In this document: one piece after another, positions 23,154 through 61,881 of the stretch
How positions within the stretch are numbered: the first letter of the stretch is position 1
How the letters are laid out: each line of letters opens with the position of its first letter
Assembly (NCBI GenBank): GCA_034620365.1
Contig: JAQGEQ010000305.1
Coordinates: forward strand, 372,001-436,000
DNA from: Pegea sp. RAD2-039
Taxonomy: Eukaryota > Chordata > Thaliacea > Salpida > Salpidae
Reading direction: 5' to 3'
DNA: 64,000 nucleotides
The notes under the pieces: generated by a model
The model's database searches: none
What the model saw: only the letters and a program-made list of their open reading frames with translations
Told to the model about the DNA's origin: nothing
Program-made: the position numbers and the translations under genes

Positions 23154-25940
23154 TTAGAATTTGTTTTGCTTTTTATGTTTGATTGCAGTAATAGCAGACA
23201 AGCGACCACTGGAACCCATTACCCCACCTCCTGTTGACCACAGAAGCAATTTTCAATTTTTTTCAAAAATAAGCTTACTTACCAGGGTGTGTTCCGCTTC
23301 CACAAAGATATAATCCTTTAATTGGTGTCTCATAAGAAGAATGAGATGAAGATGGTCGTGTGAAAAGTAATTGATCCAAAGACATTGCTCCATGGAAAAT
23401 ATTCTATCAAAATTTTAGCTAATTTCAAAAACTAATTTTTGTTATGTTTATTCTTAATCAAAGCCATTTTGTAAAAAAGCCATTTTTGGCTAGCTATAAG
23501 ACTTACTCCTCCAGTTAATCCAAACACTTGCTCCAGATCAACAGGAGTCAACACTTCGTAATCCACAATACTTTCAGTGAAGCCAGTCACATAATCATCA
23601 ATTGATTTGAAAACTGTCATCAAAAGCAAATCATCATCATCATCAGCAGCAAATCAATCCAGTGACTATCTCACCAGATTCAGCGTAATCTTTTCGATCC
23701 TCTGTCGTCCAGGACTTCCCTTTCAACAAATAGGGAGTGTACTGAGTGAAGAGCGAGATCACGTGGCTGCCTTTTGGGGCCAGTGACGTATCAATAGCAC
23801 TCGGAATACACATTTCAATCATGGGTCTACATCATATTCATTATCATCATTTCCGCTTTCAATTACAAACAAATTTACGTTCGGGAAGCGATTTGATGAT
23901 TTTTCGCGTCAATGTAGGCGTTGTGGAGAGTCGGGACATCTTCACAATTGATGTGGATTGTTCCTTTGTGTTGTTCACCAACTTGACCACGTGACTTGTT
24001 CGGTAGAGCTTTGAAATTTGGAAGAGTTTCCACGGCAACTATAACGCGACAAATCTTCGTAATTTAATCTCATCTCAAAGATCTAACCGTTGATCTTAGT
24101 GACTGGTGACGTATAATCGATGGACGCGATATCTTTAGCATGATCTGATTCCTGATAGAAAGATGAATTACGGAGTAATCTTGAAGATGTATGATGAGCA
24201 GTCGCGTTTGAGAAAACACAAGTTGCTTCGATCGATCGTCCATCAGATAGCTTCACTCCGCAAACTTGATCACCATCCACCGAGATTTCGTTCACTTCCT
24301 GCCGCCAACATCAGTTTAAACGTCGAATACCTTCAAGTCACGTGATCAACTTACACAATCGACAAAGATATCAGCGCCGTGACTTCGTGCTGATGACGCG
24401 ATAGCACGTGACACTGATCCCATTCCGCCCTCTGCAAATCCCCAAGATCCTTGAACGTTATCCAAGCTCCCAATCACGTGATGTAAAAGAACATAACCAG
24501 TGCCTACGTCATAAGGACTCGCCATTGACCCGATGACGCCATCGGTGGCCAAGGTCGCTTTTAATACGTCACTTTCAAACCAACGATCGAGGACCTGAAT
24601 TGATGACGTCATTGATGATGACGTCACAAGCTCGCGAAACTGACTTTACTGATAGGAGAGGTAAGGAATTCGTAACAAGAAGAAAAGTCTCTTCCTAAAG
24701 ATCGACCTGCAGATGCAAGAACTGAAGATGACGTCATGAGGTCGTGAAGTGGAACCTGTTTTGGTGATGAGAATTATTCCTTGGATCAAATCCCTGATAC
24801 TCGATTTGGAATGAGGAAGAGGATTGTCAAGGAGCAGACGAAGTGAAGATGCAATCCGATCCAGCTTCTCTTCGTACAAACGGAAGTTCTAAAAACGTTG
24901 ATGACGTCATTTATCACTAATGACGTCACAGCAGTGTACTTTGGCGTCATTGGCTGAAAATTTGGCAATTTGGGAGGCAGTGGTCGAGGGATCCGAGCTG
25001 ATCATTAAAAAGTCCGAAGAGTTTCGGATGGGAGTAAAAGCAGCAGTTGATCTTGTAAACCATCTCAAACCATGTCTCTGTGAAGTGGATTTGTAAGATC
25101 ACGATCACTTGAACATCACATGATCAGAGACCTTCAATTCTAGCTCTTCAATGATTTGTGGACGAAGAAGACTAAGAACATAAGAAGCTCGAGAAAATTT
25201 AAATCCAGGAACAATTTCTTCAGTAACAGCAGCGCCCCCTGGTGTCCATCTGCGCTCACAAACAGCTACAGAAAGACCATTTTTGGCTAAATAAGCAGCC
25301 TGAAAAAAAGTTAAAGAGTTTATAAACAATTTGATGATCAACTTATTTATTTCATTCAATGCTAGGAACAAGGAATACAGCTCTTATATCAACAAACAAA
25401 ACAATATGAGCAGAAAGATAATGAAAGGATCTTATCACGATTTAGTATGATTAATCAACGAAGAATAAGGGCACTGCAGAGGTAAAGGAAAAGATATGAA
25501 TCAAAAATTTATTAAAACAAAATAATTGAAAACATCAGCAAATGTATTATCACTTTTTAAAGAAACTAGTTAAATAAAATTTCTAAACAAAGTTTTATAA
25601 GAGGTGATAGATTTTGATGCAATGGGTAATAATTCCATAATCATCATATTTTTCAAAATTATAGTTTTTATATGAAAATAAGATTATTTATTTGAGTTAT
25701 TTATCTTATTTGCAAATAACTCACTGCTACTAGACCATTATGACCTCCACCAATGACTACCACATCATAAGATGATTTAATTTTGTCTAATGATGATGAG
25801 TAAGTCCTAGAGATGAATCTTGTGCTGCCTATATGAAAAAATAAGTTTCTAATTAAGAAAATAATCAAACAACAGAAAAGGCATTTTTTAAATCTAACAT
25901 TTTTCCCAAATAGAAAAAAATTAAGTTTTTGTAATTTCAT
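23154..25940 (-). CDS. PYROXD2: PYROXD2-like FAD-dependent oxidoreductase
   Basis: Flavoprotein of the phytoene-desaturase/amine-oxidase superfamily; the human protein is mitochondrial. My 11-exon model, all phases joining, is 25940-25725, 25299-25132, 25077-24940, 24888-24756, 24706-24645, 24594-24355, 24298-24088, 24038-23879, 23826-23675, 23613-23507, 23403-23283, plus a twelfth terminal piece 23230-23154. It totals about 594 residues (human 581). Seen: Rossmann motif [16 protein letters not shown] and [28 protein letters not shown], the SPVTKIN joint, and the C-terminal FAD motif [16 protein letters not shown]. Ten of the introns are only 49-103 nt; the first is 425 nt. The N-terminus is uncertain: an acceptor-like CATATAG near 25828 could add an upstream exon that replaces the first hydrophobic residues. 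Three short introns hold five TGACGTCA copies. Confidence 0.93.
24604..24928. other. Cluster of five TGACGTCA palindromes in short introns
   Basis: TGACGTCA lies at 24604-24611, 24619-24626, 24729-24736, 24902-24909 and 24921-24928. All five fall in the 49-51-nt introns of the PYROXD2 model (24595-24644, 24707-24755, 24889-24939). Three of them extend to ATGACGTCAT. The octamer is the consensus cAMP-response element, but its position inside tiny introns argues against ordinary promoter elements. Confidence 0.7.
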
Positions 25941-27606
25941 ATTAAAATTCAAATCAAATTATCTTATAAAATATAGAATAGATAAAAAGTTTTTTTATAA
26001 CATAATCAATTATAACTTTATATTGTTTTCAAAATCATTCTTTTTATTTATATCAATCTTTCCATTTATTTGAAAATAAGTGACCTTTGAATGACAAGCA
26101 CAATCTGCTAGCTGAAAAAAAACTTCCTAATCTTTGAGAGATGATCATACTTTCAGAATTAATGCTTAAAACTACAGATAAGGTTTAAAAAATATATAAA
26201 AAGAGATATTAGGTTAAAAAAGTCAACTTCATACAATCAACAAAACTATATTGTAATTATAAGGTTGTTAGTTTTATAAAATAAATATTTCATAAACATT
26301 TCAAACAAAAATATTTAGGATGTTCTTGTTTTTAAATTGTTTGAAATGATCTTAATATTTCTTAGATATTGATAAATATTTGTATAATAGTAAATTAACA
26401 TAGATTCTATTATTATAAATATATTTGAACTTTTGAAAACACAACTAGTTTACTACAACTGTTAGTATAATATATTCACTCACTTGAATAGCCGACAAAT
26501 ATTCAAACAAACTGATTTTGACATTTTCTTTAAGTAAACAAATTACTTCATTTGATAGAAATAAGCAGTGATGTTAAGGGGAACCCCCTTATTAAGTTCA
26601 ATTTAGTAAATCAGTTGTAGATTTTAACTAATAACATTTGAAACCTAATTTAGTAGATACATATGATGAATTAACCTAATAAAATAATTTTTGACAACAA
26701 TTTTGAATGCTATTGTTATTATTGTCTGCTTTAACTTTGTTAATCTTTTTTGAGAAACTTTAATAGAAGAGATTACCTCTTTAAGTTAATCAAACAATTA
26801 AAATCATCGTTAGATTATATAAACGAAATAAAACATACAAGTTTTTTTGGATAATTATGTTGAATATCTTTCACTGTTTATAAAATACTTTAATTTTTAC
26901 TTATTCTTATCTTCATTTTACCATTCCTAGCTACACAATTTAACGTTTATGAAATAATAACTGTTATCTTTTAATTATTTATAAAAGTTTTTTTATCAAA
27001 CAGGTATTCGATTTATAACTTTCTAAAACCATGAATGCTTTTAAGTTTTGTAAAGTATTAGATAAGCTGGAAGCTACGTTCATATTAAATCAACCATCTT
27101 TTTATCCTCATCAGTTATTCTTCTGTAATCATCTAGTTACCTATGATTTAAAGTGCTACATTTCGATCTGTGTATAAGTGACAATATTTTACTTTTGTTG
27201 TCATTATATAAAAAAAATTTTTTTTTAATAACTATCATTTGCACAGTTTAATCTTGTTTATTAAAATTATTTACACAATTTAATTTAATCCTAAATATTT
27301 ATTATCAGTTTTATCAAATTATATATTAGTTTTAGAAATCTCTTTTAATTTTAACCTAGGTTTGACAAACTTTTAAACTTTGAACTTGAAACCATTTTGT
27401 AAAGATTTATTCATAAAATACCAAATCTCGAAAACTAATTGAAAACTCAACAATTCTTTACTAAACTAAAATATTAAGATTTTTTCTGAAAGTAATTTCA
27501 TTAAGTATTTGTTTATTATTAATGTATTTCTGTTTCGTGGTTTATTAGATAGATATAAGTCTTTCAATTCAATAGAATATAGCAAATGTTAAACAAGCTC
27601 CCCCAG
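25941..27606. other. AT-rich spacer
   Basis: Contains the presumed 5' region of PYROXD2 on its left and the 3' region of the first FAXDC2-like gene on its right. I find no further coding sequence, RNA gene or repeat in it. Confidence 0.5.
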
Positions 27607-27927
27607 AATTTGCATAAACTAACAACAAACAAAACGGTTTAGTTCTCTTTAGGATTTTTGCTAGGATATTGTTGACAGATCGGTTTTAAACTGTAAAATG
27701 TCTTGTGTCGTTTGGATTGAACTGAATTTTGAAAGTTAACATCGGTTTTGTGAAAACTGTCCAACAGACCATTGGTGCCAAAACACTCAGTAAATCTGAA
27801 AACAGTTTTAGAAATCAGATTTATATGAATCAAAATATTCGAAATGATTTATTGAGACCCACTTTAGGTGATGATAATCGTGAAATTGAGGAGAAGCCAA
27901 AAATGGAAGATGATAATTGCAATGATG
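27607..27927. repeat. Near-identical block, 3' end of FAXDC2-like copy A
   Basis: These 321 bases match 30198-30518 (321 bases, same orientation) with only scattered substitutions and no length change. The block covers the 3' flank, the last exon, the last intron and the end of the penultimate exon. The sharp edges and lack of indels, next to clearly diverged middle exons, suggest gene conversion or a recent partial duplication. Confidence 0.85.
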
Positions 27928-33934: not shown

Positions 33935-33940
33935 TTTATT
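33935..33940 (-). terminator. Poly(A) signal of the 61-aa ORF
   Basis: AATAAA on the minus strand, about 65 bases after the stop codon of the small ORF at 34003-34188. Spacing fits a short 3' UTR. Such hexamers are frequent in AT-rich DNA, so the promoter found upstream is what makes it credible. Confidence 0.4.
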
Positions 33941-34002
33941 TTCTAGTACCATACAACAAGTTTTCATTTGAAGCTTTCAAGCTTCTTCCTTCATCTTAGT
34001 TT

Positions 34003-34330: not shown

Positions 34331-34365
34331 TTTATATACATCTTTCACCAACTGCTTTGACGTCA
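34331..34365 (-). promoter_or_regulatory. TATA box plus CRE-like octamer
   Basis: On the minus strand TGACGTCA (34358-34365) lies about 20 bases upstream of TATATAAA (34331-34338). The predicted transcription start, about 30 bases further on, would be near 34300, giving a 5' UTR of about 110 bases before the ATG at 34188. CRE followed by TATA is a classic animal promoter layout. This is the only one of the window's TGACGTCA copies in such a position. Confidence 0.45.
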
Positions 34366-42354: not shown

Positions 42355-43777
42355 TGAAAAAATCTGATTGATTTAGATGATAAAACAATTTCTCAAAAAA
42401 ATTATTCAAATTCACCAAGCTGACGAATAAAGAGAAAAAGTTATGAGAAATGTTTTTTGAATCGCGTAAAATTATCTCAAGTATTCTTATCAACTTTCTG
42501 ATCAATTATTTGAAATAAATTTCTATCAACTACATGAGAATATAGAACAATATTTTAGATTAATACTTTGAATAAATCAAATAAAAACTAACAAAAATGT
42601 ATTTATTAATAAAAGAAATATTCTTAGATTTTCTTTAACCTAATAATATTTAGATAAAAAATAAACTTAAGTTAGAATAAAAACTATTTATGTATATACC
42701 AATAATAACATTTATTTAAATCTTACAATCAAAATTAATTAGTAATAACTATATAAAGTTTACAACAATTTAGAAAAAATCGAAAAATAATTTATTAAAG
42801 TGGTTTTAATTAAAGTTTTCATGTATTTACACAACTTAAAAAAATATATTGGCAACACTTAGTTTAAAAGTGATAAATAATTTGAAATAAACCTTAAAAT
42901 TAGTTTAATAAAGTTTTATTTAATCTTATAGAAGTAAAAGAAAATTATAAATAAAAAAAACTTCTGTTAAAAACTGCAAATACTGATTCATATTTTCTGC
43001 TCTCCTCTCTTCTGCGATTTCTTAAAATGAAACTGCAAACTCAAATTTGAAAAAACTCAACATACTGATAAGAATCTTTTTCACGATAAAAAGAATTTTG
43101 ACAAAATCTATTTCAGGTCTTCAACTTTTTCATTCTAGTAATCTTTTACTTGAAAATCAATATTACAATTTTTCCATACATAAGTTTTAATCTAATAGTC
43201 AAAAATATTAACTCAAATGAAAAATCTGAATTCTATATGATTTTAAAATCTTATACTATCTGATTATTCTAACTTCTGAAAGTACATTTTGAATCAATTC
43301 TAATAGTACTTGATTTAAACATTTGTAATCAGTGTTTCTAGAATTAACTTCATAAAATTAAAAGATACAGTCGTTACTGGACTAATAGATGAAAATGCTT
43401 TGAAAACGGTGTAAGTTAGTTTAGAAGAATCTGTTTTACAAAAATAAATTTATGTAGATAATCCAGCTTAGCTTTCAGTTTCAAAGTCTAACTATTATTA
43501 TAGTTTTAAAAATATTTGAAACTTGATATTTTTACGAAACTATTTCTTTAACTTAAAACTGTTATCAAGAAATTTATTTCAAAATACGAATCAAAAATTT
43601 AAATTGCAAAAAAATAAAAATTCTAGTTGATAATGAAATAGCACACAGCAATATATAAGTTGAAAATTTCCAATTGACTACATCAGGTAAATTGATCAGT
43701 CTGAAGACATAAAATATAAAACAACAAAAAGTTATTGAAAAAAACAAAATGATTGAAAAAAAGATTGCACATGAAGA
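42355..43777. other. AT-rich spacer
   Basis: Between the 5' end of the PKI-like gene and the 3' end of SNX25. No coding exon or repeat recognised. Confidence 0.5.
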
Positions 43778-46700
43778 TCAAACGCGGATTTGAGGGAAGA
43801 GGCTCTCAATCGTGTCAGCAAACAAATTCTGAAGAAAAAAAGTCATTAGTAAATAAAAATTGAAAACAAAAACTGACAAAAATCAGGTGTTTGTTGAGAC
43901 GTTTATCCTGAAGGGAGAAGAAGATCTTAAGGAAGCCTCTTCGGGTGTTTTCGTGTCCCAGCATCGTACTTATGACCTCAGGGATGCTGTCTAGGATCTT
44001 CATCTTCAACTCATCTCTAGTTTTCTCTTTCTCCTTTATTCAAAATCTGTTTTTTTCAATTGGAAATACTTTTTTTCAACTCACTTCTGGTGTTCTGTGA
44101 TATTCATCAGCTTGTGACAACTTTCCATCTGGCCAAAAAGATTGAAGAAATGACGTCATATAGAAGCAGATCATCTTCTGTGACGTCATCCATTGACACA
44201 TCTCGCGTAGCTGTCTGTACAAATCAGGTAAATGTAAAAATTGGTCACCAATTACAACAACCAACCGATCGATGCTTCTCCCGAACGCGATTCGAACGAA
44301 CATGACGATCGAGTGTCGAATGAAACGAAAGAATCCGGTTAACTCAAAGATCTCACTAATCAGTAAATAAGCTTGCGATGCAACCGAGTCTTTGGAACTG
44401 AAAAGAAGATGAATCAGTAAAGAAAAGATGAAGAGATGAAAAACGAACAACTCTTCATCATCGCTGCTGTCGGAGTTTAATGTCTTTTCCGCTGAGATCC
44501 ATTTGAAAAGATCATTTTGATGAGATTCTAAAGATTTTAGATTTGTTAAATCATCAGGAGATAAAAAATTGAAGATAATTTCACTAGATCTTAAATCTTC
44601 ATCCTACAAAAGATCAAAATTCAAAGATCAACATCCAAAGATCAACATCCGGACACCTTCATCACTTTCAAAAGGAAAACATCCAGTTCTTGTCTTGAGT
44701 TGCTCAAAAATTTTTGATTAAAACCCAAAAATCGGAAAATCGGAATCTTAGGAAGACTCCATTGTTTCACCCAATCACTACACTGAAAATCGAAGATAAA
44801 GACGCGAGAAACGATGACGTCATCACACCTCTTTCAGTTGCTCGTGAAGTTCGTAAAAATCTTTCAAACTGCGTTCAACTGACCACCCAGTGACGTCATC
44901 GCCGCCTTTTAGCGACTCATCCGTTACATGAATCGTGACGCAATAATGAAGATTAGAGGCAGCTCCGGAGGATGCTGTGATGACAAAAGTGATGCGCGCT
45001 GATGACGTCATATCGAGTTTACCTGAAGTTGGCGATGTAAAGCTGTTTGTGATGAGGACTTTCCATTTTGAGATATTTTTCCACCAGATGTTGCAACGCT
45101 CGACACAAAGTTGAAGTCGACACTTGCGGCGCTGTAGCAATCCGATCTCATCGATCAGCTGATTAGTCATCTGTGAAAATCATTCAAGCATGACGAGCAA
45201 ATTATTATTTGAAATAATTTGAAAAGAAAATCACTTTTGGAACTGAATTGTTAATACTCGATAACGCTTGAGCTTTATATTCTAATTTTTCATCAATTTC
45301 TTTGATCTCTTTCAACAACTCATCCGAAGAAGTTTGATTTGTTATCACTAGAGGGCGATGTTGAGCTGTATCTTCTTCATCTTCAATATGACTTCCAATG
45401 ATTTCGAATAATTCTAGCATCAATTCATTCGTGTAAATATCACTGACGACGAATGAAGGGTAGTGATCGGTTTTCAACAAGTCGTACACCTACAGGATTG
45501 TAAATAACAAATTGAAATCAATAAATTGCTGGAACCTGCTTCTGGATGTAGAAGAAGTCACTTGGAGGTTTATTACCGACAAGACACTCTTGCATCCCAC
45601 TCAAAGTGGATTTGTCGACAGAAATTGAGATGAATTCTGTTGAGGTACTGATGATGTAGGCCTGGTATGAATGAGCAATAATCTTTGCAAGATCTTTCCC
45701 CGCCGGTTTGTTCAATTTGATAAACTCCATCTAAAAGATCTGATAAAGATGAAGATCAAAAGATTTTATTAACAACCTGCTCCCAAAATTTTAATAATTG
45801 AGACTTGTTAATCTTGCGAAGATATTTGAGCAAATAACTCCTTGCGATTGCTGAATTCATGATCTCTTCAAAAGAGAGAAGCTGCAAGATCTCAGATTTC
45901 ATAAAATAGAAAAATTATTTCCAAAAATTTCACTTTTTGATCTTTAGAAACTTCGGAGTTTGAATCTTCACATGAAAAAATTGATCCATAATCTTTACCT
46001 CCCAGCTCCCTGAGGTTCGCTCAGATTTAATCAAATTAGAAACTAACCAATCACGAGCTACCTGATTTTCTTCTCGCATTGTTGCTTAGCAACCTGACAT
46101 TGATTGATGTACCTCTTCAAATTACGAGTGATCAATAATTCACCCTTTAAAGATTTCAATCTTCAGATGAAGATCATTAAAGATTTTTCTGACCTTATCA
46201 TGACTACGAGGAGTCTTCCCACTTTTATTTCCATCTTTTTTTAAACTATTAATCGTTGTAGCTTGAAGCACTTCAGAGCAGATCCTCATTCTGAAAGAGA
46301 TTCCTTCAATTAGTTGAGAGAGTTTGTGGAAATCCGAGTAAATGCCTGATTTCAATCAACTCTTCCAAATTTTCACATTTATTGATAATTTTTATGAAAT
46401 CTTCATAAGTAGCTGCGTATGAATATGTCCGAACAAGATCTTCTTCACTCAGATCTCTTTGTTTGAAATAATTTAATAAAATTTGATTGATGTAATCTGG
46501 CTCACAAAGCAAGTCAACCAACTTCATCAAAACTGAAATTAATCAAATTATCTAAAAAAAATTTTCAAATTTATTTGACCCACCTAATTTTGACAAGATT
46601 TCTCTTAAGATGTATCTCATACTGCTCATTTGAACATCTTCATCTGAAAGAACAAGGGTGATGAAGTAATCACTGATTAATCCGAGATACTCTTCCTCTG

Positions 46701-49960: not shown

Positions 49961-51239
49961 GTAAGTTGTGTGGAATAATTAGTTCAAGCTAACACCGATA
50001 AAAAATCATACGTGTCTCCACTCCTCGAGTCTATTAATAGACTATTTTTATTTTTTGAAGTTTTTCCATTTTTGTCACTAAATTTTTTTAAAGCTTTTTT
50101 ACAAAAAGAGGATTCAAAACCAGCTGTGACTTTCAGATGAAATTATCTTTTGTTTGATTCTAAATAGAAGTTTTCAGGTCATTTAGAACTTTTAGGTTTT
50201 TTTGATTGTTCTTCTAAAAAATCTCTTTTTAGATATTTGCAAAAAGGTCTTAAAACAGAGCTTCTTTTAATTTTCTTTTTAAATATTATCAACTCATCTA
50301 AAACTTTTAATTTTAGTTTTAGTAATTAAGTTTTTGATTTTTAATTTCAACAGTCTCGTAGCCATGACGTCACTTTAATGACTTACATTACATCAATAGC
50401 TGATCGGTTTTATCCAAATCTTTAAAATTCGTTTTGTTTAAACATCTTCACTTGTTTGTGAAAATTTTTGAAAAGTTTGAAAATAAAAGTTTTGATCAAA
50501 AAAAACATCAATTGATATTTTCCACATACAATCTTCAAATCATTTATTTATCGATTGTATATTTCAAATATATCTCTTTTTTGTGTATCTGCAAAATAAC
50601 ATCTTCTCTTTTTCTATTTTGATATATTTTTTGTTGATTTTCTTAAACTACTTGATAAATATTGAAATGAATTTGTTGTTTGATTTCAAAAGTTTACAAT
50701 CCACTAGTTAGGATCAGAACATGGTAGTAGATGTAAGATTAACGATATTATCTCGAAATTATAAGTAAACTTCATCAAAACTTAGAGTTGAACTCAACAA
50801 ATTTCAAACTTTTTATTTCAACTTTCTAATCTCGAAGCCACAAAAACAACTTTTTAATTTTTTTTTTTCATTTAGTCTCCCATTTACACACAATTAACGT
50901 TTTTTCTACAAAGCGATCAAACGTAAATGTTAAAAAGCTTGAAAATAATAAACTTTCATTTACTCATGTTCAAGCTGGTTCCAGGAAGTGCAAATTTACC
51001 TGATGACGTCATCACTAAGCTTTCCATAAACTCATCCGCTGGGAAAAAAGAACTTTTTAATATCAAATCAATGATCAAATTATTTTTCAAAACAATTTTA
51101 ACCTCAAATTTTTTCTAAGTAATATTTGTTTTAAAATAAATTTTTACAAATAACCTTTAGCTAATAGAATAAATCAGCGATTAATATTTGATAATGAATA
51201 CAAAAATGGATTTTTACAGGAATTTAATTACAACGTATT
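49961..51239. other. Spacer with unassigned exon-like fragments
   Basis: Contains a perfect 16-bp palindrome followed by T-runs at about 50030-50055 (AGTCTATTAATAGACT). On the minus strand, a piece with a strong polypyrimidine acceptor and a GTAAAT donor spans about 51043-51005. On the + strand the same place reads PGSANLPDDVITKLSINSS. TGACGTCA occurs at 50365-50372 and 51004-51011. These signals suggest an exon or two of an unknown gene, but I cannot join them. Confidence 0.3.
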
Positions 51240-51833
51240 CTAAATTGAAATTTGATTATTTGACTTTCTTTTTTTAAACTTTCTATAGATGAAAATCACC
51301 AAAAATAAAACCATAAAAAATACAGGTATTAAACTCAAAAAAGCCAAACTAGGTTTTTCTTCAACTTTAGGTTTAATACTCTTCAAAACTAAAGGTTTCC
51401 AGCAAATAAAACTATCAATATTAAAACATTCAGTTGCAAATAGAAACTTGTCATCTGTCTTCGATATTAGCAAAATGATTTTATTACATTTTTTTGAAGG
51501 GTGGATTTTCCATCTAGGGTCAAAAAGTTCATCATCTTCTTTTGCGTCGTAAATTTTTCCATTACTCCAAAAGCCTTTTGAGTAATTCATATGAAGTCCA
51601 ACACCCCATGTATTCCGGCGTTGCCTTATTGTAATCAAATCTCCGAATCTCCCATCTTCACAATTTTCAAGATAAGGTTTGACAAAGTTAAATCTTTCAA
51701 CTGAGTTGATTGGAGCAAGAACAGAAGAATACTTTTTACAATAATTCACTGATTCCTCATAATTTAATCGCTGATCAACAAATATCAACTGACCAAAGCT
51801 GCCTGTTACAGAATCTTTACAAGTTCCATCCAT
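51240..51833 (-). CDS. C-type lectin-like membrane protein
   Basis: About 197 residues from the ATG at 51833; the frame stays open about seven codons further upstream. A C-type-lectin-like domain fills residues 1-145: GQLIFVDQRLNYEESVNYC (helix 1), the WGVGL core motif, FWSNG, and the closing Cys pair ATEC...SFICW. A 22-residue hydrophobic segment (SLAFLSLIPVFFMVLFLVIFIY) and a short Lys/Arg-rich tail follow. This is the layout of a type I surface lectin, but no signal peptide is present, so a first exon is probably missing upstream. No EPN or QPD calcium/sugar triplet is obvious, so sugar binding is doubtful. Within this piece there is no intron. Confidence 0.75.
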   Translation of the reverse strand: MDGTCKDSVTGSFGQLIFVDQRLNYEESVNYCKKYSSVLAPINSVERFNFVKPYLENCEDGRFGDLITIRQRRNTWGVGLHMNYSKGFWSNGKIYDAKEDDELFDPRWKIHPSKKCNKIILLISKTDDKFLFATECFNIDSFICWKPLVLKSIKPKVEEKPSLAFLSLIPVFFMVLFLVIFIYRKFKKRKSNNQISI

Positions 51834-53233
51834 TTTAATTTTGTGAAACTCCAAATTGAAGGCAATTCACTGTTTACTTCCATCATATTACTTCCTGTAC
51901 TTCCAAAATGCTTGTTTTCAAGTTTGGCTTTTGTTTACTTATTTTGGGTTTTAAAATTTATTTTTGTTTCAAAAATCTTTAATATTACAAATATTTGATG
52001 CAATTTTTATATCTATTTGGCAAGCAATTCGATAAAAACTTTGAAATTAATGTCCTGGTTTAAACCTCACATAGGATACAAACAGTTAATAAACTACTGG
52101 TTGGGTCGATTTAGTGTCTGGAGAAGAGAAACAGAACTAGTCTGAAAATTATTTTGCAAATGAATTGTATTTAGAGGTGCCAAGCACTTGTCTACTTTAT
52201 TGTCTATTTCGGATGAGGTTACTTAAGAGACACGCAAACACAAACACGATTTACCCTCTTTGTAGTTTGTATTCCCACAAAAATTCATTTTCTTTAATTT
52301 TTTTATTGAATGTTTAAAAATTGTGTTTTGAGGTCAATTTAATTTGAAAGAAACGTAAAGAACTTTTTAATAAGTTTTTATTCTTAATCAAAAAGCTATT
52401 TTTTGGCTAATAAGCTAAGGTTACCTTAGCTCTAAAATTATTTTAATTTTCAAAATTTTGAATATTTAAATTATTTGAAATTTTAAAATCTTCCTTAATA
52501 GTTATAAAAAAACGTTTTTAGTATTAAACACTTAAAAACTTGCTTATTTAGTTTCATAAATTAAAATTTGATTGAAAATAATTTTAAAAGTTTTTTAATT
52601 GACTAATGATCATTTATTGAAATTGATAAAAATTTCAAAATTGTTTTTTTATTTAAACGTTTTACAAAATTTCTTTAAACGAATTTGAGGTTATTATAAC
52701 ATCTTAGTCATGTGAGAACAGAAATGAAAAGGTTCAGTAGTAAAATGATTTAAATTGATAAAAAACCAGCAAACCATTGTCAAATATAATTGTAAAATTA
52801 GGTGAAATTTCAAATGCTTGAAGAACAAATGAAACTTTAATAAGAGTTACTATTTCAATTTGTCACAAATTTATATAAAAAAGATCGTTTTTTGTGATCA
52901 CCTCTTTTTTTCCTTCATCGCAAGTTATAAAAACGATTCTTTCAACAAAAAAATTCATTTTTTGACTGAAACCATATATTTGATGAAGCAATTTGAAAAA
53001 GCATTAAATATTTTTGAAAATAGTACTTGTATGCCTCGGGGCTTAAAATAGTTTTTCAAATAAAGCTCTAATGTTTACTTAAAAATATTTCATTCATAGC
53101 TCCCATTTTATTTTGAGCATTAGGAATAATCCAACTATGATTTTTCTTAACTTTTTGAATTTATTAAAAATATAAAAAGTTTTCATTTTTATTTATTTTT
53201 TTCAGAATTTGATTTAGCATCTTTAGACACACA
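51834..53233. other. Spacer between divergent genes
   Basis: Separates the minus-strand lectin-like gene from the + strand secreted-protein gene, so it should hold two promoters and possibly the missing signal-peptide exon of the lectin. A more complex patch at about 52060-52260 may be transposon-derived. I cannot place the exon. Confidence 0.4.
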
Positions 53234-56200
53234 ATGTCTCAGATGATTTATCTTCTTTTGTTTTCTCTTTCAATCATTCAAGTCATTCTATGTGCTCCTA
53301 CATCTTCAAGATCTAATCAATTTCTTCAATTAGCTTCTTTCGAAGACGACTTTGAATTTAGAAAGAAGATATTTGAAAATAAATCCGCAAAAATTAGAGG
53401 GCAAACATCAAATTTACCAAAAGGAAAACGTAAGAAAAGTTCTAATTGAAATTTAATTTCTTAATTTTCTTTAACAATTTTAAATAAATTTTTTGATATA
53501 TTTTTCTGAAATAATTTTTAATTTCAACTAGAAAACTTTAACTTGTAAATCTTATGTTTTTATTTAAACATTCCCTTTTTTTACCAAGCATATTTTCAAA
53601 ACAGTTTTAAGTCTTTTGTGGGTCATAAATTTACCTCAAATTTGTATTTTACTTTAAAATCTGAGAAAGAAATGTTGAAGTTCATTTTAGTAAGTTATTC
53701 AGTAATTTAAACATCAAAAACAAGATATTTAATAAAATAGTAAAAATGAAAAGCTATTGTTTACTACAACCCAATGTAAGAAATTATTTGCTAGTTATCA
53801 TCTGAGAGAAACCTATGAGGTAGTAATACTTTAAAATGAAGATGTAACAGGAATTTTTAGGGTAAAACCACAAGTACCAGGTAGTGAATAGAAACCTAGT
53901 TCATTTAATTGTCGATTAAATCAATTATTCTTTGAAAACAACTTTTGGTATTAAAATGATTAAATGTACATTTTGAAAACTGACGTATTATGCTATAGCA
54001 AATTATTTTTCAAACCTAATTCTGAAAGTTCGTTCTTGGTAATTTGTCCAAAATTCATAATAAATGCTTTTATCTTTTACAAAAGTTGAATAAAACCTTT
54101 TTTTGATAAGCTTTTTTATCTTAAAAGTACTTTGCTTTTAATTAAAAGTTAAAGTAATCATTTTTTAATAACAGCTTTTAGACAAACATTTTGGTTGTAA
54201 ACAATCACCAAGTTTTTAACTTATTCCTTTTTCAACATTTAAGAACGAAATTATGATTATATTGACTTTTTTATTACATCAAATAGAATTATTTTTGTAA
54301 AATATTAATTCAGTTTTTATTATTTGTAATTATTTTACTAATTGATTTTTCATATCCTTTTTTAGCAATGTTTTCAACTGCGTATAGTTCAACATCGATT
54401 TTGAACAAATAGAATTTTAACAATTTCTAATTTTTTTAAACCAAAAGTGCTCAGGAGTTGTTTTGAAGTCAACGTCTATTAGGACTAATAAAAATCTCAT
54501 CAATTAAGTTGACAATACAAATAAATAAGAAAGTTTAATAATTTCAAAATTTGTAAAACTTCTGGAAAAACTAGTTTTGACTAAAAAGAGATTAGAGAAG
54601 CTACGAATAGAAATTTTGAAATTTAAACTTTTTTGAAAAACCAACATCATTATTCGCTCTCTGGAAGATCTATGAAAGGTGATCGATATTTAAAGCAAAC
54701 TTCATCTTCTAACACCAAATTAACACACAATGTTATATCAAAGATTTTTAGTGACAATAAAAAGTCCATATAAAAAAACCGGGTAGAAGGGCCTTGTTAG
54801 TCTGGTCAGTGACAACACTTCTAGGTGACGCAAAACTCCGAATTAAAGCCAGAGTTGGAGCCTTGTAGACAGTTTCTAACTGTACTCAGTGTCGTTCTGA
54901 CAGCTTCTGTGACACTTGCTCGGTGCAGCTGCATCATTCTGTCTATTCCACTGTATACCTTGTAGGCATGGAAAGTGAAATCTTGCTGTATGGGCAACAA
55001 CTTGATAGCCATGACTTCTGCCCTGACACATATATGCTCGCATGAATGACCGTTTGCAGCTGAAATGGGACAAAATAAAATATTAACGATTTAAATTTTT
55101 AACAGCTTGCATCGATGACTCAGACTGTCCTAACTACTTCATCTGCGTTGACATGTTGGAAACAACTAGAAAGTATTTGACATCAACAAAAAAACTGAAG
55201 CAGCTGAAGAAAGTGACCAAAAAATTGAATATTTCTGGCAAAGAGTGTTGGAATAATCCTAACAATTTAATAAAAGATATCACAAAAGATCAAATCTCAA
55301 ATAAAGTTGAACAAGTTCGAAAGAAGTTAGTGGATGTTTACAGAAGTTTGCAAGAAAACCAGATCTGGTTGGAGATGCCATCCGTATTGAAGCATGACGT
55401 CATCAACATCACTATGCAAACTGAATTTCAATCAGGTGATTTGATTGGTTGATCGGTTTGATTGTAAATTTAAAATTGTCAATTTCAGAACTAATACAAG
55501 AATTTGTATCAAATACATTTATACTTTCTACGAGAGGAAACACTGAAAGAATTTTCGATTTGGAAACACTTTTTCCATTCCTCATTCTCGGTTCTGCAGC
55601 TGTCAGCAGCGAAACTTCTGGAAATTCAACTGGTTTCCTTGACAACCCGTTTCTTTTCTATGTGCTTAGCAACAGCAATCGAAGCGAGAATTTGGACAAC
55701 CTGATCTTGATGAGCATTCTCTCTTCCACATCTCAACTCACAAACTCTTCCAAGGATCACTTCCTTACTCTTCCTCTTAACTTGAAGTTATTTCCTGATA
55801 TTGACAAAGTGGGGCGAAATGATCTGATCCCTTTCTTCTTCTCACCTGATCTTCGTCATCACTTCAATATGACGTCATCAACATCAGCAGTGAGTCTGAT
55901 GTTAGATGATGAAGATGAGGATGTTGAGATTGAAGATCTGCTCCCAGTTTTGCTCACATCGAGTCTCGGAGGAGCAGGGATCAACATCCAACAATCACTT
56001 CCTCTTCTTTTGATGTCTGATCGAATTTTGAACAAATCAATTTCAAATAATTTCCTTTTATCACTTCTCGGAGGAAAATCTTCTAAACTGATGAACTTCC
56101 TACATCAATCTGATCTTAACACTCTCCGACATGATCCCAGCATCCTCTCACTACTCAACATATCAAAGGGCGAAGATGAAGTTTCAAACTTTCTTAAAAT

Positions 56201-56675
56201 CTCTGACGAAAAGAATATCCGAAAAATTTTGATCTTCATCTTCATCTCAGATCTTTTTCATCAAGACCCCACCTCTCTATTTCCTCTTCTTCTTTCAGAA
56301 GATGCATCTTTGGTGAAAATTGAAGATTTGCTGATGTTAATGATTATCGGAGGAGACCAGATCAAAAGTTTGAATGTCTTTCTCCCACTTCTTCTTCGCG
56401 ATTCTCATCAGGTGGATCACAACATGTTGATGATGATCGGGATCTTATCGCGATTCGAACACTTCGACATCGATCAAGACGGTTTGAAGGTTCCATTCAA
56501 GTCACGTGAGTGTTCTAAGGTCAAAAGGTCAACTTGTATTCTCATTTGCATATTCGCAGCTCTCAACTTGCTCTTGCCTTTGATGATGCTCCACAAATCT
56601 GCTGAGAGCGACATCTCGGACCTTCTGCTCCTCATCTACGTCACAACACCGCAGGAAGCGAGCTTCAATTTTTGA
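53234..56675 (+). CDS. Novel secreted Leu-rich repeat-block protein
   Basis: Four exons: 53234-53429, 55106-55435, 55489-56505 and 56560-56675 (introns 1676, 53 and 54 nt), giving 552 residues. A clear signal peptide opens it (IYLLLFSLSIIQVILCA). A short Cys motif follows (CIDDSDCPNYFICVD), then a basic helical stretch. The last ~370 residues repeat a loose unit: a polar/acidic linker, then a hydrophobic block such as DLLPVLLTSS, SLPLLLMSD, SLFPLLLSEDA, VFLPLLLRDS or LLLPLMMLHKS, alternating with LL.L.IIGG-like blocks. I recognise no family. The units are too irregular for classical LRRs. Asn-Xaa-Ser/Thr sites are frequent, fitting secretion. Intron 3 (56506-56559) is a multiple of three without a stop, so retention would keep the frame. 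A transposon-like repeat sits in intron 1. The gene converges on the PHF7-like gene, with stop codons about 165 bases apart. Confidence 0.75.
54772..55075. repeat. Dispersed ~300-bp repeat, copy 2
   Basis: Partner of 1934-2227. It lies in intron 1 of the secreted-protein gene and stops about 30 bases before the exon 2 acceptor, so it may carry part of the branch-point region. On the minus strand it has an open frame of about 60 codons, not conserved as an ORF in the other copy. Confidence 0.6.
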
Positions 56676-56840
56676 CATTTTTTTGTGAATTAATAAAATG
56701 TTTGAAAATTGATAAAAAATCATTTGAGAGTGATTTCGGTTTATTTGAAATTGAAACACACAAAAAACTAATTGAAGATATCAAAGATGAGACATACAAA
56801 GATCTGGAGAGTTTAAAACGTTTTCACGAAATTGTTTACT

Positions 56841-59800
56841 TCATTTTAGTTGTAATTTTGCTATTAAGAATTTTGTCGAGTATGTGGTTAGACTAGTTTT
56901 AAGAAACGGCCGTTTCGAAAAATGACCCGATCGTAAACTTTTGTCAATTTTATTTTGGACATTTTCTAAACTTCCTTTACTCCCATTTTGGACTTTTTCC
57001 AAACTTCCTTTTCTCTTACTTTGGACTTTTTTTAAATTTCTTTTTCTTCTATTTTGGACTTTTTCTAAACTTCCTTTATTTCCATTTTGGACTTTTTCTA
57101 AATTTCTTTTTCTTCTACTTTGGACTTTTTCTAAACTTCTTTTTCTCCCATTTTGGACTTTTTCTAAACTTCCTTTATTTCCATTTTGGACTTTTTCTGA
57201 ACTTCCTTTATTTCCATTTTGGACTTTTTCTAAACTTCTTTTTCTTCTATTTTGGACTTTTTCTAAACTTCTTTTTCGCTTATTTTGGACTTTTTCTAAA
57301 CCTCCTTTATTTCCATTTTGGACTTTTTCTAAACTTCCTTTTTTTCCATTTTGGACTTTTTCTAAACTTCCTTTATTTCCATTTTGGACTTTTTCTAAAT
57401 TTCTTTTTCTTCTACTTTGGACTTTTTCTAAACTTCTTTTTCTCCCATTTTGGACTTTTTCTAAACTTCCTTTATTTCCATTTTGGACTTTTTCTAAACT
57501 TCTTTTTCTTCTACTTTGGACTTTTTCTAAATTTCTTTTTCTTCCATTTTGGACTTTTTCTAAACTTCCTTTATTTCCATTTTGGACTTTTTGTAAACTT
57601 CCTTTATTTCCAATTTGGACTTTTTCTAAACTTCCTTCATTTCCATTTTGGACTTTTTCTAAACTTCCTTTATTTCCATTTTGGACTTTTTCTAAATTTC
57701 CTTTATTTCCATTTTGGTCTTTTTCTAAACTTCCTTCATTTCCATTTTGGACTTTTTCTAAACTTCCTTTATTTCCATTTTGGACTTTTTCTAAATTTCC
57801 TTTATTTCCATTTTGGTCTTTTTCTAAACTTCCTTCATTTCCATTTTGGACTTTTTCTAAATCTCCTTTATTTCCATTTTGGACTTTTTCTAAACCTCCT
57901 TTATTTCCAATTTGGACTTTTTCTAAATTTCCTTTATTTCCATTTTGGACTTTTTCTAAATCTCCTTTGTTTCTATTTTGGACTTTTTCTAAACTTCCTT
58001 TATTTCCAATTTGGACTTTTTCTAAACTTCCTTTATTTCCAATTTGGCCTTTTTCTAAACTTCCTTTATTTCCATTTTGGACTTTTTCTAGACTTCTTTT
58101 TCTTCTATTTTGGACTTTTTCTAAACCTCCTTTGTTTCTATTTTGGACTTTTTCTAAACCTCCTTTATTTCCATTTTGGACTTTTTGTAAACTTCCTTTA
58201 TTTCCAATTTGGACTATTTCTAAACTTCCTTTATTTCCAATTTGGACTTTTTCTAAACCTCCTTCATTTCCATTTTGGTCTTTTTCTAAACCTCCTTTAT
58301 TTCCAATTTGGACTTTTTCTAAATTTCTTTTTCGCTTATTTTGTACATTTTCTAAACTTCCTTTATTTCCATTTTGGACTTTTTCTAGACTTCTTTTTCT
58401 TCTATTTTGGACTTTTTCTAAACTTCCTTTATTTCCATTTTGGACTTTTTCTAAATCTCCTTTGTTTCCATTTTGGACTTTTTCTAAATCTCCTTTTTTT
58501 CCATTTTGGTCTTTTTTTAAACTTCCTTCATTTCCATTTTGGTCTTTTTCTAAACCTCCTTTATTTCCAATTTGGACTTTTTCTAAACCTCCTTTATTTC
58601 CAATTTGGACTTTTTCTAAACTTCTTTTTCTTCCATTTTGGACTTTTTCTAAATCTCCTTTTTTTCCATTTTGGACTTTTTCTAAACTTCCTTTATTTCC
58701 AATTTGGCCTTTTTTTAAACTTCCTTTATTTCCATTTTGGACTTTTTCTAAACTTCTTTTTCGCTTATTTTGGACTTTTTCTAAACTTCTTTTTCTTCTA
58801 TTTTGGACTTTTTCTAAACTTCCTTTATTTCCATTTTGGACTTTTTCTAAATCTCCTTTGTTTCTATTTTGGACTTTTTCTAAACTTCCTTTATTTCCAA
58901 TTTGGCCTTTTTCTAAATTTCCTTTATTTCCATTTTGGACTTTTTCTAAACTTCCTTTGTTTCCATTTTGGACTTTTTCTAAACCTCCTTTATTTCCAAT
59001 TTGGACTTTTTCTAAACTTCTTTTTCTTTTATTTTGGACTTTTTCTAAATCTCCTTTTTTTCCATTTTGGTCTTTTTCTAAACTTCCTTCATTTCCATTT
59101 TGGTCTTTTTCTAAATCTCCTTTGTTTCCATTTTGGACTTTTTCTAAACTTCCTTCATTTCCATTTTGGTCTTTTTCTAAACTTCCTTCATTTCCATTTT
59201 GGACTTTTTCTAAACTTCTTTTTCTCCCATTTTGGACTTTTTCTAAACTTCTTTTTCGCTTATTTTGGACTTTTTCTAAACTTCTTTTTCTTCTATTTTG
59301 GATTTTTTCTAAATTTCCTTTATTTCCATTTTGGACTTTTTCTAGACTTCTTTTTCTTCTATTTTGGACTTTTTCTAAATCTCCTTTTTTTTCATTTTGG
59401 TCTTTTTCTAAACTTCCTTCATTTCCATTTTGGTCTTTTTCTAAACTTCCTTCATTTCCATTTTGGTCTTTTTCTAAACTTCCTTCATTTCCATTTTGGT
59501 CTTTTTCTAAACTTCCTTCATTTCCATTTTGGTCTTTTTCTAAACTTCCTTTATTTCCATTTTGGTATTTTTCTGAGTTATGATCAAACGAAACTGGTTG
59601 AACTATATTTTTGATAACTTTTTTCTTTGTACTTTTCGAATTTTCCTCAGTCATTTTTTCGTAATCCTGATTTTCATTTTCACTCTGATCTTCATATTCT
59701 TTTTGATCTTCACTCTGATTCTGATCTTCTTTCTGATCTTCATTTTTGCTCAGATCTTCATCTCTACTCAGATCTTTATCTTCATTATGATCTTCATCTT

Positions 59801-61881
59801 CCTTCATCTTTAACTTCTTCTTTAACTCCCTTTTTTTTGAAACTTTATCAGCTTTTCTCTTTGAAGCACTCTTACGAGACTTATGCTGCACAAAAGCTGT
59901 ATCACCATTCCTTTGGCTCCGAAGTCTTGTGGCTATCGGCTGGTTCTCATTAATTTGTTCGAATTCTATAACTGCACAATCTGTACAAGTAAAAGTGGAA
60001 TTCTCATTAACAATATCCGGGTGACAATGTATGTGGGTTCCTTTAGCAGCACAATATCCACACAGAATGACTTCCCATTCAGAGCTTGGCATTGAGTAAC
60101 TGAAAAGGAAAAGAAGTTGAAACCTTGGAAGAGATGAGGAACAAGTGATTAAAGAGTTTGAATATCAGTACAATTAGAAAGCATAAGACTCAAAACAATC
60201 CCAAATATGGAAATGATGACGTCATGACTTACTCTCGACCATGAGGACAGAGGCAATCTGTTTGATCACAATTTGAATGTCTTACAGTGAGATCTGAAAA
60301 TGCTCCAGCCTCTGTTTCCCAGGCAGCATCTCTGTCGGGAACATGTAGTCCCATTTGCAGCATATGTTTCTCAAATTGAACTTTATCATTACAAACTGGA
60401 CATCTAAAGAAGTGGAGTCCGAAAGATGTTGCCTAGAGATGCAAGTAGTTGAGAGGATCAATGATCACAATGTGATCTTTAAACTCACACATCTTTGAAG
60501 ACACAACTTATGTGAATAGATGTTGTTGCAGCAAGGTGAGAGAAGGACTTCTGAAACATCAAAAGGTGGTTTCAAGAGTTCAAAGCAAGCAAAACACGTG
60601 TAGCTCTGAAAATTTGATTAGTTGAGTCTTAGTGAAGTTCTGACACAAATACGAACCTCTTTTGGGTAAGTTTGAGTTTTGACAGATTTCATATCCTTGA
60701 TATCTGCAAACAAGACTTTTAAGCTAAATGAAAATGATGATGGTGATGGAATGATTACATAAAGGCGAGTTTTTGTATACATCAGGCAACGGCCGATGGT
60801 TGACGCACCATGTCTGATAGTAGTTTGTAAACTGACTTAGTGAGCGGGCTGGCACCGAACAAGGGTAGTGCATCTTCTTCTATAAGCGTAAAAGTAGATT
60901 TAAATAAGTAACAATTTGGTTAAAATAATTTTATTGTGAAATTAAGCTGAGTAAGAAGTTTAGTAAATTTTTAAAAGATTTATTTGAAAATATATTTGTT
61001 AAAGAAATTCTTTAGACGTGTTTCAAGGCAAATCGAATTTGACTGACAGCTTCTTTGCCTCAAAAACTCCTCGACCAACGACATCAATCTTACCTTATAG
61101 AAAAATATTGTGCAAAATAGTACTTTAGAGACGCTTGTAATACAAGCGCCTAAACTTCTACAAATAATTATTAAAACTAACATTACAACTTGCAACAGCG
61201 CATCCAATTGAAGCACCTTTCTTCTTACAATAATTACATTTCAGTAAAGCAGCTCTTTTGATTTCTGCAAACAAACAATTTGAAAAGGGAATAGAAAATA
61301 AACAACTAACCAGCAACAATATCAACAATTTTGAAGCCATATATGTGATTTGATCTATTTGTTGTATCACACGACCGTCCTTTAACTTTCTGGACCAGGC
61401 CACTTGCAAGGACCAGGCAGAAGTAATGAACTTCCAAACCTATAAAAAAGTCATTTCACAAAAATTTTTTTTAAACTATTTTCTTAATTAAATAAAAATA
61501 TAAGACTGAAATAAAGTGGAGTATATGAAAAACTACTTCATAAAAATATATCAGCAAAAAAACTGAAAACATTCTTAAATGTAACCCACAGAGTTTATCA
61601 TTAACCTTTCTACCTTTTTTTTATTTAGTTTTCAACTTATTTCCACACTTTATTTGTTAGTTGTGACCCAAAATTCATGAAATTAATAATGATTGGTGAT
61701 AGTTTAACTAGATATTTTTATTAATTGATTTATAGTTAATATATTGTAATTATAAGATGCTTTTTGAAATCATTTTCTAACCTGACGGACTATGCTTGAT
61801 ATATTCACCAAACTTATTCTCATCATCTACAGATAAGCCACAATAGATACAACCTTTTTGAGTCTTCAGCTTTCTCAACAT
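56841..61881 (-). CDS. PHF7/G2E3-like PHD-RING protein with giant repeat tail
   Basis: Eight exons: 61881-61782, 61439-61311, 61264-61182, 60879-60759, 60703-60657, 60605-60489, 60432-60233 and 60099-56841, about 1351 residues. Seen: extended PHD (11-130; CIYCG...LEVHYFCLVLASGL...CKKKGASIGC...HYPC...WCVNH); a RING-like module (163-215; CFAC...CC.N..H..C...FFRCPVCND); GLHVPDRDAAWE; and a second PHD-like module (250-310; WEVILCGYC..KGTHIHC). This order is that of PHF7 and G2E3, E3 ubiquitin ligases (PHF7 acts on histone H2A in male germ cells). Known relatives are about 380-700 residues. Here a Lys/Glu/Asp-rich linker (about 330-440) leads to about 80 units of 11 residues, type NGNKGSLEKVQ, to about residue 1320. 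Role of the tail unknown; target inferred from family only. Confidence 0.88.
56946..59579. repeat. Coding minisatellite, about 80 x 33 bp
   Basis: A head-to-tail array of 33-bp units within exon 8 of the PHF7-like gene. On the + strand a typical unit reads TTTCCATTTTGGACTTTTTC plus TAAACTTCCTTTA. All units keep the 33-bp length, so the frame never breaks. Translated unit classes are NGNKGSLEK, NGNEGSLEK, NRRKRSLEK, NKRKRSLEK and NGKKGDLEK, joined by VQ or DQ. The five units nearest 59579 are almost uniform (NGNEGSLEKDQ), the others are mixed. The antisense strand is also open for about 880 codons, a by-product of the unit composition. Confidence 0.95.

What the first reader, a model, noticed from the sequence alone, without database searches (positions are those of the whole stretch)
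24604..60224. Strong excess of the palindrome TGACGTCA in gene cores
I count 16 copies: 24604, 24619, 24729, 24902, 24921, 34358, 44151, 44181, 44815, 44891, 45003, 50365, 51004, 55395, 55870 and 60217. Ten extend to ATGACGTCAT, often followed by C. With a G+C content near 28-30% (my rough estimate), well under one copy is expected in 64 kb by chance. By my gene models about eight lie in introns, five in exons (in different codon frames), one in a promoter-like site and two are unassigned. This is not protein-driven and not simply promoter CREs. It behaves like a genome-level signal such as a protein-binding, recombination or chromatin motif, concentrated in GC-richer gene segments.
Basis: partly seen in the sequence, partly recalled or inferred. 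Interest (0 to 1): 0.8.

Follow-up and report, generated by a model that had tools for sequence, protein, structure and literature searches.

The report
Genome-wide CRE palindrome in gene cores
An AT-rich animal genome carries tens of thousands of copies of one eight-letter DNA word, the classic CREB/ATF protein-binding site, often clustered inside genes (in coding and non-coding parts alike) within small GC-rich islands, which suggests a DNA-level protein signal on an unusual scale.

Summary
Genome-wide there are 27,792 copies in 105.7 Mb against 969 for the reversed word. In 244 kb (window plus 18 stretches) it and its overlapping octamers head the list, 49x over an order-2 model; its 24 one-mismatch neighbours average about 1,550 copies. 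Copies cluster (5,280 pairs with gaps of 0-30 bp), seem to favour a 20-bp spacing, show CREB/ATF-like flanks and lie near TCACGTGA E-boxes. GC rises locally at neutral positions: GC3 0.42 vs 0.26, introns 0.35 vs 0.26. Best reading: a CREB/ATF-type bZIP site used in homotypic clusters as open-chromatin islands in gene cores. Boldest reading not excluded: it marks meiotic recombination hotspots like yeast M26 (ATGACGTCAT), with GC-biased conversion making the islands. Binding and recombination are inferred. The species is unidentified and no related eukaryote was searchable.

The parts
24604..24626 (.). Two TGACGTCA copies (24604, 24619) in one ~55 bp intron of the PYROXD2-like gene (gene on - strand)
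24729..24736 (.). TGACGTCA in a ~34 bp intron of the PYROXD2-like gene
24902..24928 (.). Two TGACGTCA copies (24902, 24921) in one ~51 bp intron of the PYROXD2-like gene
23751..25250 (.). GC/CpG island (250-bp bins GC 0.40-0.48; 6-17 CpG per bin) in the core of the PYROXD2-like gene; holds 5 TGACGTCA, and TCACGTGA at 24338 and 24474
23169..25751 (-). PYROXD2-like gene, from first to last matched stretch; multi-exon
   Evidence: partly confirmed by the gene finder
34358..34365 (.). TGACGTCA, AT-rich context, not assigned to a gene
44151..44188 (.). Two TGACGTCA copies (44151, 44181) in the sorting-nexin Nexin_C exon, both read as MTS
44815..45010 (.). Three TGACGTCA copies (44815, 44891, 45003) in the sorting-nexin gene; by eye in ~46-49 bp introns, called exon by the gene finder
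   Evidence: reading of the sequence
43751..46000 (.). GC/CpG-rich segment (250-bp bins GC mostly 0.35-0.46, two bins 0.29-0.30) in the sorting-nexin gene with 5 TGACGTCA
50365..50372 (.). TGACGTCA, unassigned
51004..51011 (.). TGACGTCA near the C-type-lectin-like open frame (51243-51866, -); exon by the gene finder, splice boundary possible
55395..55402 (.). TGACGTCA within an open frame 55087-55449 (+); unassigned by the gene finder
55870..55877 (.). TGACGTCA within the 411-codon open frame 55440-56672 (+), read as MTS; unassigned by the gene finder
60217..60224 (.). TGACGTCA in a predicted long intron (- strand) beside the repeat-bearing open frame 56844-60164

Best explanation
TGACGTCA is here a double-stranded DNA signal: the full palindromic binding site of a CREB/ATF-family bZIP dimer, present at about 27,800 places in this animal genome and often in homotypic clusters in the cores of genes. 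A cluster, with occasional TCACGTGA (bHLH-ZIP type) sites, would hold a short stretch of chromatin open in the germ line, as an intragenic enhancer or chromatin-opening island, and DNA-level selection would maintain the exact word in introns and, where the reading frame allows, in exons. The GC- and CpG-rich halo of some 300-500 bp would be a by-product of that open state (GC-biased conversion and/or lower AT-ward mutation). Shown: the word, its sharpness, its clustering, a 20-bp spacing preference, flanks, gene context and the local GC rise. Inferred: the bZIP identity, in vivo binding, open chromatin and selection.
For: 27,792 exact copies vs 969 for the control; 37,125 copies over the 24 one-mismatch words, about 1,550 each. 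50 of 53 GACGTC in 244 kb are TGACGTCA. 49 copies against 1.47 expected from local composition in 764 non-repeat 300-bp windows. Flanks of 131 sites (262 half-sites): +1 T 0.61/C 0.29, +2 C 0.47, +3 A 0.49, i.e. RTGACGTCAY, a bZIP preference (recalled). 5,280 pairs with gap 0-30 against about 226 if evenly spread (my arithmetic). Spacing 20 bp: 466 pairs, against 160 per spacing for 14-16 and 227 for 24-26. With chained pairs counted once on C1 and on C3 to 800 kb: 29 against 8.3 (24-26) and 11.0 (14-16) per spacing, p = 6e-6; leaving out the part of C1 that suggested the idea: 19 against 6.3 and 9.3, p = 0.0017. No pair closer than 11 bp among 75 pairs of 38 bp or less. TCACGTGA 4,614 vs 237 control, 17 of 27 in held loci within 300 bp of a TGACGTCA (12.9% of bases).
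Against: No binding, accessibility or expression data, and bZIP genes were not searched for. Of 74 copies, 26 were called exon, 13 short intron, 5 longer intron and 30 unassigned, with no position relative to a transcription start known. The spacing test compares one spacing with six others and was suggested by the first C1 listing; tandem arrays inflate the raw counts; of 75 close pairs the 19 found only in my own loci include none at exactly 20. 79 of the 131 sites come from five loci taken because they were dense. Several conserved open frames (PEX19-, kinase-, ubiquitin-hydrolase-, DNMT1-like) hold no copy. One apparent partner motif (AGGAAGTG) was an artefact of a minisatellite.
Confidence: 0.55

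Rival explanations
1. M26-like recombination signal: ATF/CREB-type binding at TGACGTCA directs meiotic double-strand breaks to gene cores; repair with GC-biased gene conversion raises GC at neutral positions within a few hundred bases and breeds minisatellites nearby. The motif itself would still need selection or drive, because breaks tend to erase the hotter allele.
For: GC3 0.42 within 200 bp vs 0.26 beyond 1.5 kb, intron GC 0.35 vs 0.26, GC2 only 0.40 vs 0.37: a regional effect, strongest at neutral positions, fading over about 500 bp. ATGACGTCAT is the M26/CRE hotspot motif, active in both S. pombe and S. cerevisiae (PMC3534124, passages). Uneven large-scale distribution: 0.064/kb over the first 1.56 Mb of C1, 23 copies in 10 kb near its end. 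In window plus L001-L018, 5 of 8 long tandem arrays lie within 1 kb of a copy (counted by hand).
Against: No recombination map or polymorphism. A break-inducing motif should be depleted by conversion, not enriched (27,792 vs 969). Not all fission-yeast CREs are hotspots (PMC9775316, one passage). A lower AT-ward mutation rate in open, unmethylated DNA would also raise GC; CpG observed/expected is 0.87 near and 0.64 far from copies, and DNMT1-like genes exist. GC1 also rises (0.49 vs 0.44). The arrays were not tested against a null.
Confidence: 0.25
2. A highly-iterated-palindrome effect like HIP1 of cyanobacteria: a self-maintaining or methylation/repair-linked word with no local regulatory role.
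For: One exact octameric palindrome, in coding and non-coding DNA, with a CpG in the centre and DNMT1-like genes in the genome. HIP1-type words were tied to methyltransferases with matching targets (PMC4390886, passages).
Against: Copies cluster strongly, show a 20-bp spacing preference, are densest in GC-rich windows and co-occur with another factor-type palindrome. DNMT1 is not known (general knowledge) to recognise an octamer.
Confidence: 0.1
3. Intron- or splicing-linked element (introner ends, branch-point context): TGAC fits the branch-point pattern and many copies sit in ~50 bp introns.
For: All 5 PYROXD2 copies are in three 34-55 bp introns; density in predicted introns of 120 bp or less is 13 per 6.8 kb, against 26 per 51.0 kb in exons.
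Against: The palindrome is strand-neutral, and TCACGTGA is in excess too. Some exon calls are wrong (44815, 44891, 45003 by eye), so the exon share is overstated.
Confidence: 0.06
4. Composition, protein coding or one repeat family produces the excess.
For: Copies favour GC-rich windows, and some tandem arrays contain the word.
Against: 49 observed against 1.47 expected from window composition; both frames used; flank composition near background beyond about 4 bases; in the listed part (C1, and C3 to 800 kb) collapsing arrays lowers 32, 44 and 35 pairs to 29, 25 and 33.
Confidence: 0.03

Closest known systems
cAMP response element (CRE), CREB/ATF-family bZIP site
   Same: Identical palindrome TGACGTCA; flanking preference RTGACGTCAY (the bZIP preference is recalled); CpG-rich surroundings, as for 298 of 373 human-mouse conserved CREs in CpG islands (PMC1796609, passages).
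   Different: In mammals CREs are most frequent within 150 bp upstream of start sites, a bias seen in the vertebrates examined and not in sea squirt, fly or worm (PMC1796609). Here many copies sit inside genes, in short introns and exons, with about one copy per 3.8 kb genome-wide.
M26/CRE meiotic recombination hotspot of S. pombe (Atf1-Pcr1)
   Same: Motif ATGACGTCAT (PMC3534124, passages); 10 of 16 window copies have that form, with a GC halo that would fit conversion.
   Different: No recombination data here; tens of thousands of natural sites in an animal.
HIP1 highly iterated palindromes of cyanobacteria
   Same: One exact 8-bp palindrome hugely over-represented genome-wide (PMC4390886, passages).
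   Different: Eukaryote; strongly clustered, densest in GC-rich windows, a spacing preference, and a known TF-type sequence. The passages seen do not describe such features for HIP1.
Homotypic TF-site clusters / CpG-island regulatory elements
   Same: Several equal sites within a few hundred bases, with E-box partner sites and high CpG (general knowledge of the kind).
   Different: Inside gene cores, also in exon sequence; genome-wide scale in one dominant word.

Membership tests
CREB/ATF bZIP binding site (CRE) | Core TGACGTCA with RTGACGTCAY flanks | tested here: met
   (+1 T 0.61 or C 0.29 over 262 half-sites; 79 of 131 sites from loci chosen as dense); the flank rule is recalled
CREB/ATF bZIP binding site (CRE) | Bound in vivo by a bZIP dimer | not testable with these tools
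   no chromatin data; bZIP genes were not searched for
CREB/ATF bZIP binding site (CRE) | Arrangement that implies protein binding (clustering, helical spacing, minimum distance) | tested here: inconclusive
   clustering clear; spacing 20 preferred (p = 0.0017 on data not used to form the idea) but 0 of 19 pairs in own loci; no pair under 11 bp of 75
Vertebrate-type promoter CRE | Position within about 150 bp upstream of the transcription start | tested here: inconclusive
   no start sites known; PYROXD2 copies lie about 0.8-1.15 kb inside the first matched exon, sorting-nexin copies at or near the C-terminal domain exon
M26-type recombination hotspot | Raised meiotic break or crossover rate at the motif | not testable with these tools
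   no map or polymorphism; no second copy of 43700-46000 in the assembly apart from a minisatellite
M26-type recombination hotspot | Footprint of biased conversion: local GC rise at neutral sites | tested here: met
   (GC3 and intron GC; L015 left out); not specific to conversion
HIP1-type iterated palindrome | Extreme excess of one palindromic octamer genome-wide | tested here: met
HIP1-type iterated palindrome | Cognate methyltransferase recognising the word or its core | tested here: inconclusive
   11 DNA_methylase matches, three strong DNMT1-like; specificity unknown
Introner / mobile element | Shared flanking sequence or terminal repeats beyond the word | tested here: not met
   flank composition near background beyond about 4 bases; no element-wide alignment was made

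The most novel reading that the evidence does not exclude
An animal genome in which the CRE/M26 palindrome is the genome-wide determinant of intragenic recombination-prone open chromatin: tens of thousands of ATF/CREB-type sites, many in gene cores, set local GC by biased conversion and are kept even in coding exons, an animal counterpart of the fission-yeast M26 system and a eukaryotic 'iterated palindrome'.
Probability: 0.22. Interest if true: 0.87.

Novelty: new variant of a known kind. Interest (0 to 1): 0.66.

Why it matters
A single transcription-factor palindrome that shapes exon, intron and GC content across a whole animal genome would be a rare case of a DNA-level signal acting inside coding sequence. 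It offers a direct test of whether factor-bound sites, rather than PRDM9 or promoters, place recombination in an animal, and of how a break-directing motif could persist despite the hotspot paradox. Even if it is purely regulatory, the density inside genes is unusual. I found no report of such an excess in the listings of the searches made (open-licence PubMed Central only, so subscription papers are not covered).

Tried and rejected
Species identification failed: Rfam 18S searches gave no answer, COX1 gave no match, 12 contig ends of 400 bases showed no telomere repeat by eye, and a strict paper search for the assembly size (4 of 6 terms) gave nothing. I take it for an animal by gene content (LDLR-A plus 7tm_1, C-type lectin-like, sorting nexin, PEX19), with a gene close to PDB DNMT1 entries (673.9 bits; species not printed). 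No tRNA and no Rfam family was found in the window.

A first gene finder with self-training drifted to calling almost everything genic and was dropped; fixed parameters were used, and three calls (44815, 44891, 45003) still look wrong by eye.

The idea that the motif is simply an element of short introns was suggested by PYROXD2 and set back by exonic copies in two frames. The idea that the GC islands are merely exon-dense segments was set back because intron GC and GC3 rise together near copies. An apparent ETS motif (AGGAAGTG) in the islands was an artefact: 24 of 33 copies in the held loci come from one 17-bp array in L039. A search for a second copy of 43700-46000 found only a 14-bp minisatellite family. 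The inverted arms of L017 are 99.4% identical, too similar to show motif turnover.
Full report
1. Observation. The window holds exactly 16 TGACGTCA, all at the stated coordinates; 100 dinucleotide-preserving shuffles gave a mean of 0.36 and at most 2. Ten of 16 extend to ATGACGTCAT (read). G+C is 27.5%. The window is C12:372001-436000 of a 105,744,746-base genome in 387 contigs.

2. Genome scale. The word occurs 27,792 times in the genome against 969 for the reversed control word. Allowing one mismatch gives 64,917 against 28,668, so the 24 one-mismatch words together have 37,125 copies, about 1,550 each (control: 27,699, about 1,150 each). Only the exact palindrome is strongly favoured. A second palindrome, TCACGTGA, has 4,614 copies against 237 for its control. 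The window (which was given because of the finding) and 18 stretches taken at a fixed position in contigs C1-C20 (L001-L018; two of 20 requested did not exist) make 244 kb with 50 copies: 16 and 34. Of the 18 stretches 7 have none and two (L015, L017) have 11 each. In these 244 kb the word and octamers overlapping it head the list of octamers: counting both strands, 100 observed against 2.02 (order-2 Markov) or 5.24 (order 3). An order-6 model cannot show the excess, because 50 of 53 GACGTC are already TGACGTCA (window alone 16 of 16, with an order-6 expectation of 16.0). Matched to the composition of 764 non-repeat 300-bp windows, 1.47 copies are expected and 49 seen.

3. Distribution. 5,280 pairs have a gap of 0-30 bp, against about 226 if evenly spread (my arithmetic). 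The first 1.56 Mb of contig C1 has only 100 copies (0.064/kb), the genome average being 0.26/kb; a 10-kb stretch near the end of C1, chosen because listed as dense, has 23. Of 41 TCACGTGA in that first part of C1, 10 lie within 200 bp of a TGACGTCA, against 0.79 for random positions.

4. Spacing. Start-to-start spacing of 20 bp occurs 466 times, against 682 for 24-26 together, 481 for 14-16 together and a mean of 170 over spacings 8-38. Tandem arrays inflate these numbers (24-bp unit at C3:391171-391682, 20-bp unit at C8 from 368056; listings are capped). Counting chained pairs once on C1 and on C3 to 800 kb gives 29 for spacing 20, against 8.3 per spacing for 24-26 and 11.0 for 14-16 (p = 6e-6 among these seven spacings). 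The idea came from the first 2.9 Mb of C1; without that part it is 19 against 6.3 and 9.3 (p = 0.0017). Against it, the 19 close pairs found only in my own loci include none at exactly 20. Among 75 pairs of 38 bp or less none is closer than 11 bp. Two helical turns, and no overlap, is what cooperating protein dimers would give (inference).

5. Flanks. Over 131 sites (262 half-sites; 79 of the sites come from five loci chosen because dense: L019, L020, L039-L041) position +1 is T 0.61 or C 0.29, +2 is C 0.47, +3 is A 0.49, and composition comes near background beyond about +4. This is the RTGACGTCAY preference of CREB/ATF proteins (recalled) and argues against a mobile element.

6. Gene context. 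With a recalled human PYROXD2 sequence as query, a PYROXD2-like gene was modelled at 25751-23169 (-); all five copies 24604-24928 fall in three introns of 34-55 bp. A simple gene finder over 27 loci (291.7 kb) put 74 copies as: exon 26 in 51.0 kb, intron of 120 bp or less 13 in 6.8 kb, longer intron 5 in 18.0 kb, unassigned 30 in 216 kb. Some exon calls (44815, 44891, 45003) look by eye like short introns, so the exon share is overstated. Of 26 exon-called copies 14 use the frame xTG-ACG-TCA and 12 the frame xxT-GAC-GTC-Axx; the third frame would put a stop (TGA). Exonic examples lie in recognisable proteins: the sorting-nexin Nexin_C exon and, by my reading of the translations, a sulfotransferase-like and an EXOSC5-like open frame. 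Amino acids do not explain the word.

7. GC islands. Many copies sit in GC- and CpG-rich stretches: 23751-25250 and 43751-46000 in the window, and alike in L015, L017, L019, L020. Not all do: 7 of 35 copy-holding windows have GC below 0.30. Mean GC falls from 0.39 beside a copy to 0.31 at 400-500 bp, 0.29-0.31 to 2 kb and 0.26-0.27 beyond; CpG falls from 37 per kb to 16 and then 9-13. Of 38 windows with GC of at least 0.40, 19 lie within 500 bp of a copy, against 88 of 764 overall. With the word masked, and L015 left out because of its minisatellites, GC3 is 0.42 within 200 bp, 0.35 at 200-500, 0.27 at 500-1500 and 0.26 beyond; intron GC is 0.35, 0.28, 0.29, 0.26; GC2 is 0.40, 0.37, 0.35, 0.37; GC1 is 0.49, 0.49, 0.49, 0.44 (lenient gene model; the stricter one agrees). 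The sample includes dense loci L019 and L020. The rise is largest at neutral positions and regional, which codon or protein selection does not predict. CpG observed/expected is 0.87 near and 0.64 far. The genome has DNMT1-like genes, so methylation is possible.

8. Mechanism. Steps inferred: a CREB/ATF-type dimer binds; bound clusters keep chromatin open in the germ line; selection maintains the word; the open state changes base composition. ATGACGTCAT is the M26 hotspot motif, which works in both S. pombe and S. cerevisiae (PMC3534124, passages). GC-biased conversion at such sites would account for the halo, but not by itself for the abundance of a motif that breaks should erase, and not all fission-yeast CREs are hotspots (PMC9775316, one passage). 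Lower AT-ward mutation in open DNA is an equal candidate for the halo.

9. Comparison. In mammals CREs concentrate just upstream of start sites, a bias seen in the vertebrates examined and absent in sea squirt, fly and worm (PMC1796609, passages). HIP1 of cyanobacteria is the nearest iterated palindrome (PMC4390886, passages); those passages do not speak of islands or spacing. Paper searches listed nothing that describes this excess in an animal; apart from the four papers named, I saw only search listings.

10. Limits. About 0.3% of the genome was read base by base; five dense loci were chosen for being dense; the species is unknown; no relative, transcriptome, map or polymorphism was available; the gene models are crude.

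Noticed in passing
window 56952-59574: A 33-bp tandem array (79.5 copies, 87% matches) inside an open frame of 1107 codons on the - strand (56844-60164), which begins with a zinc-finger/PHD-like stretch (my reading).
   Followed up: no
G000:C3:391171-391682, C8 from 368056, C3:813967-814166: Tandem arrays whose 20- or 24-bp unit contains TGACGTCA itself.
   Followed up: partly
window 44609-44650; C17:105548-106614, C247:467301-468504, C3:595222-595661, C23:215415-215988, C1:2127244-2127369: A 14-bp minisatellite family shared between loci; at least three of the places (window, C17 = L015, C1) lie within a few hundred bases of TGACGTCA.
   Followed up: partly
L037, L038 (C57:819728-826344) and C249:1740707-1742050; C32, C52: Three DNMT1-like open frames of about 860 codons without stops, two of them inverted neighbours, plus four more divergent DNA_methylase open frames on C32 and C52.
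   Followed up: partly
L017:1-1703 and its inverted copy at L017:5609-7306: Inverted duplication, 99.4% identical over 1.7 kb, at a sulfotransferase-like gene (my reading), with two TGACGTCA copies in each arm.
   Followed up: partly
window 62327-63235 (PEX19), L007:5266-7998 (Nup84/Nup100), L008:772-1740 (PIG-X), window 13403-16438 (LDLR-A + 7tm_1): Several conserved genes appear as single long open frames, while the motif-rich PYROXD2-like gene has many ~50 bp introns; possible retrogene turnover.
   Followed up: no
L015:5543-6616 and 7549-9671; L007:1308-4555; L039:8662-9156; L040:5539-6077; L041:485-1293: Long minisatellites, each within 400 bp of a TGACGTCA copy (L039-L041 were chosen because dense).
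   Followed up: partly
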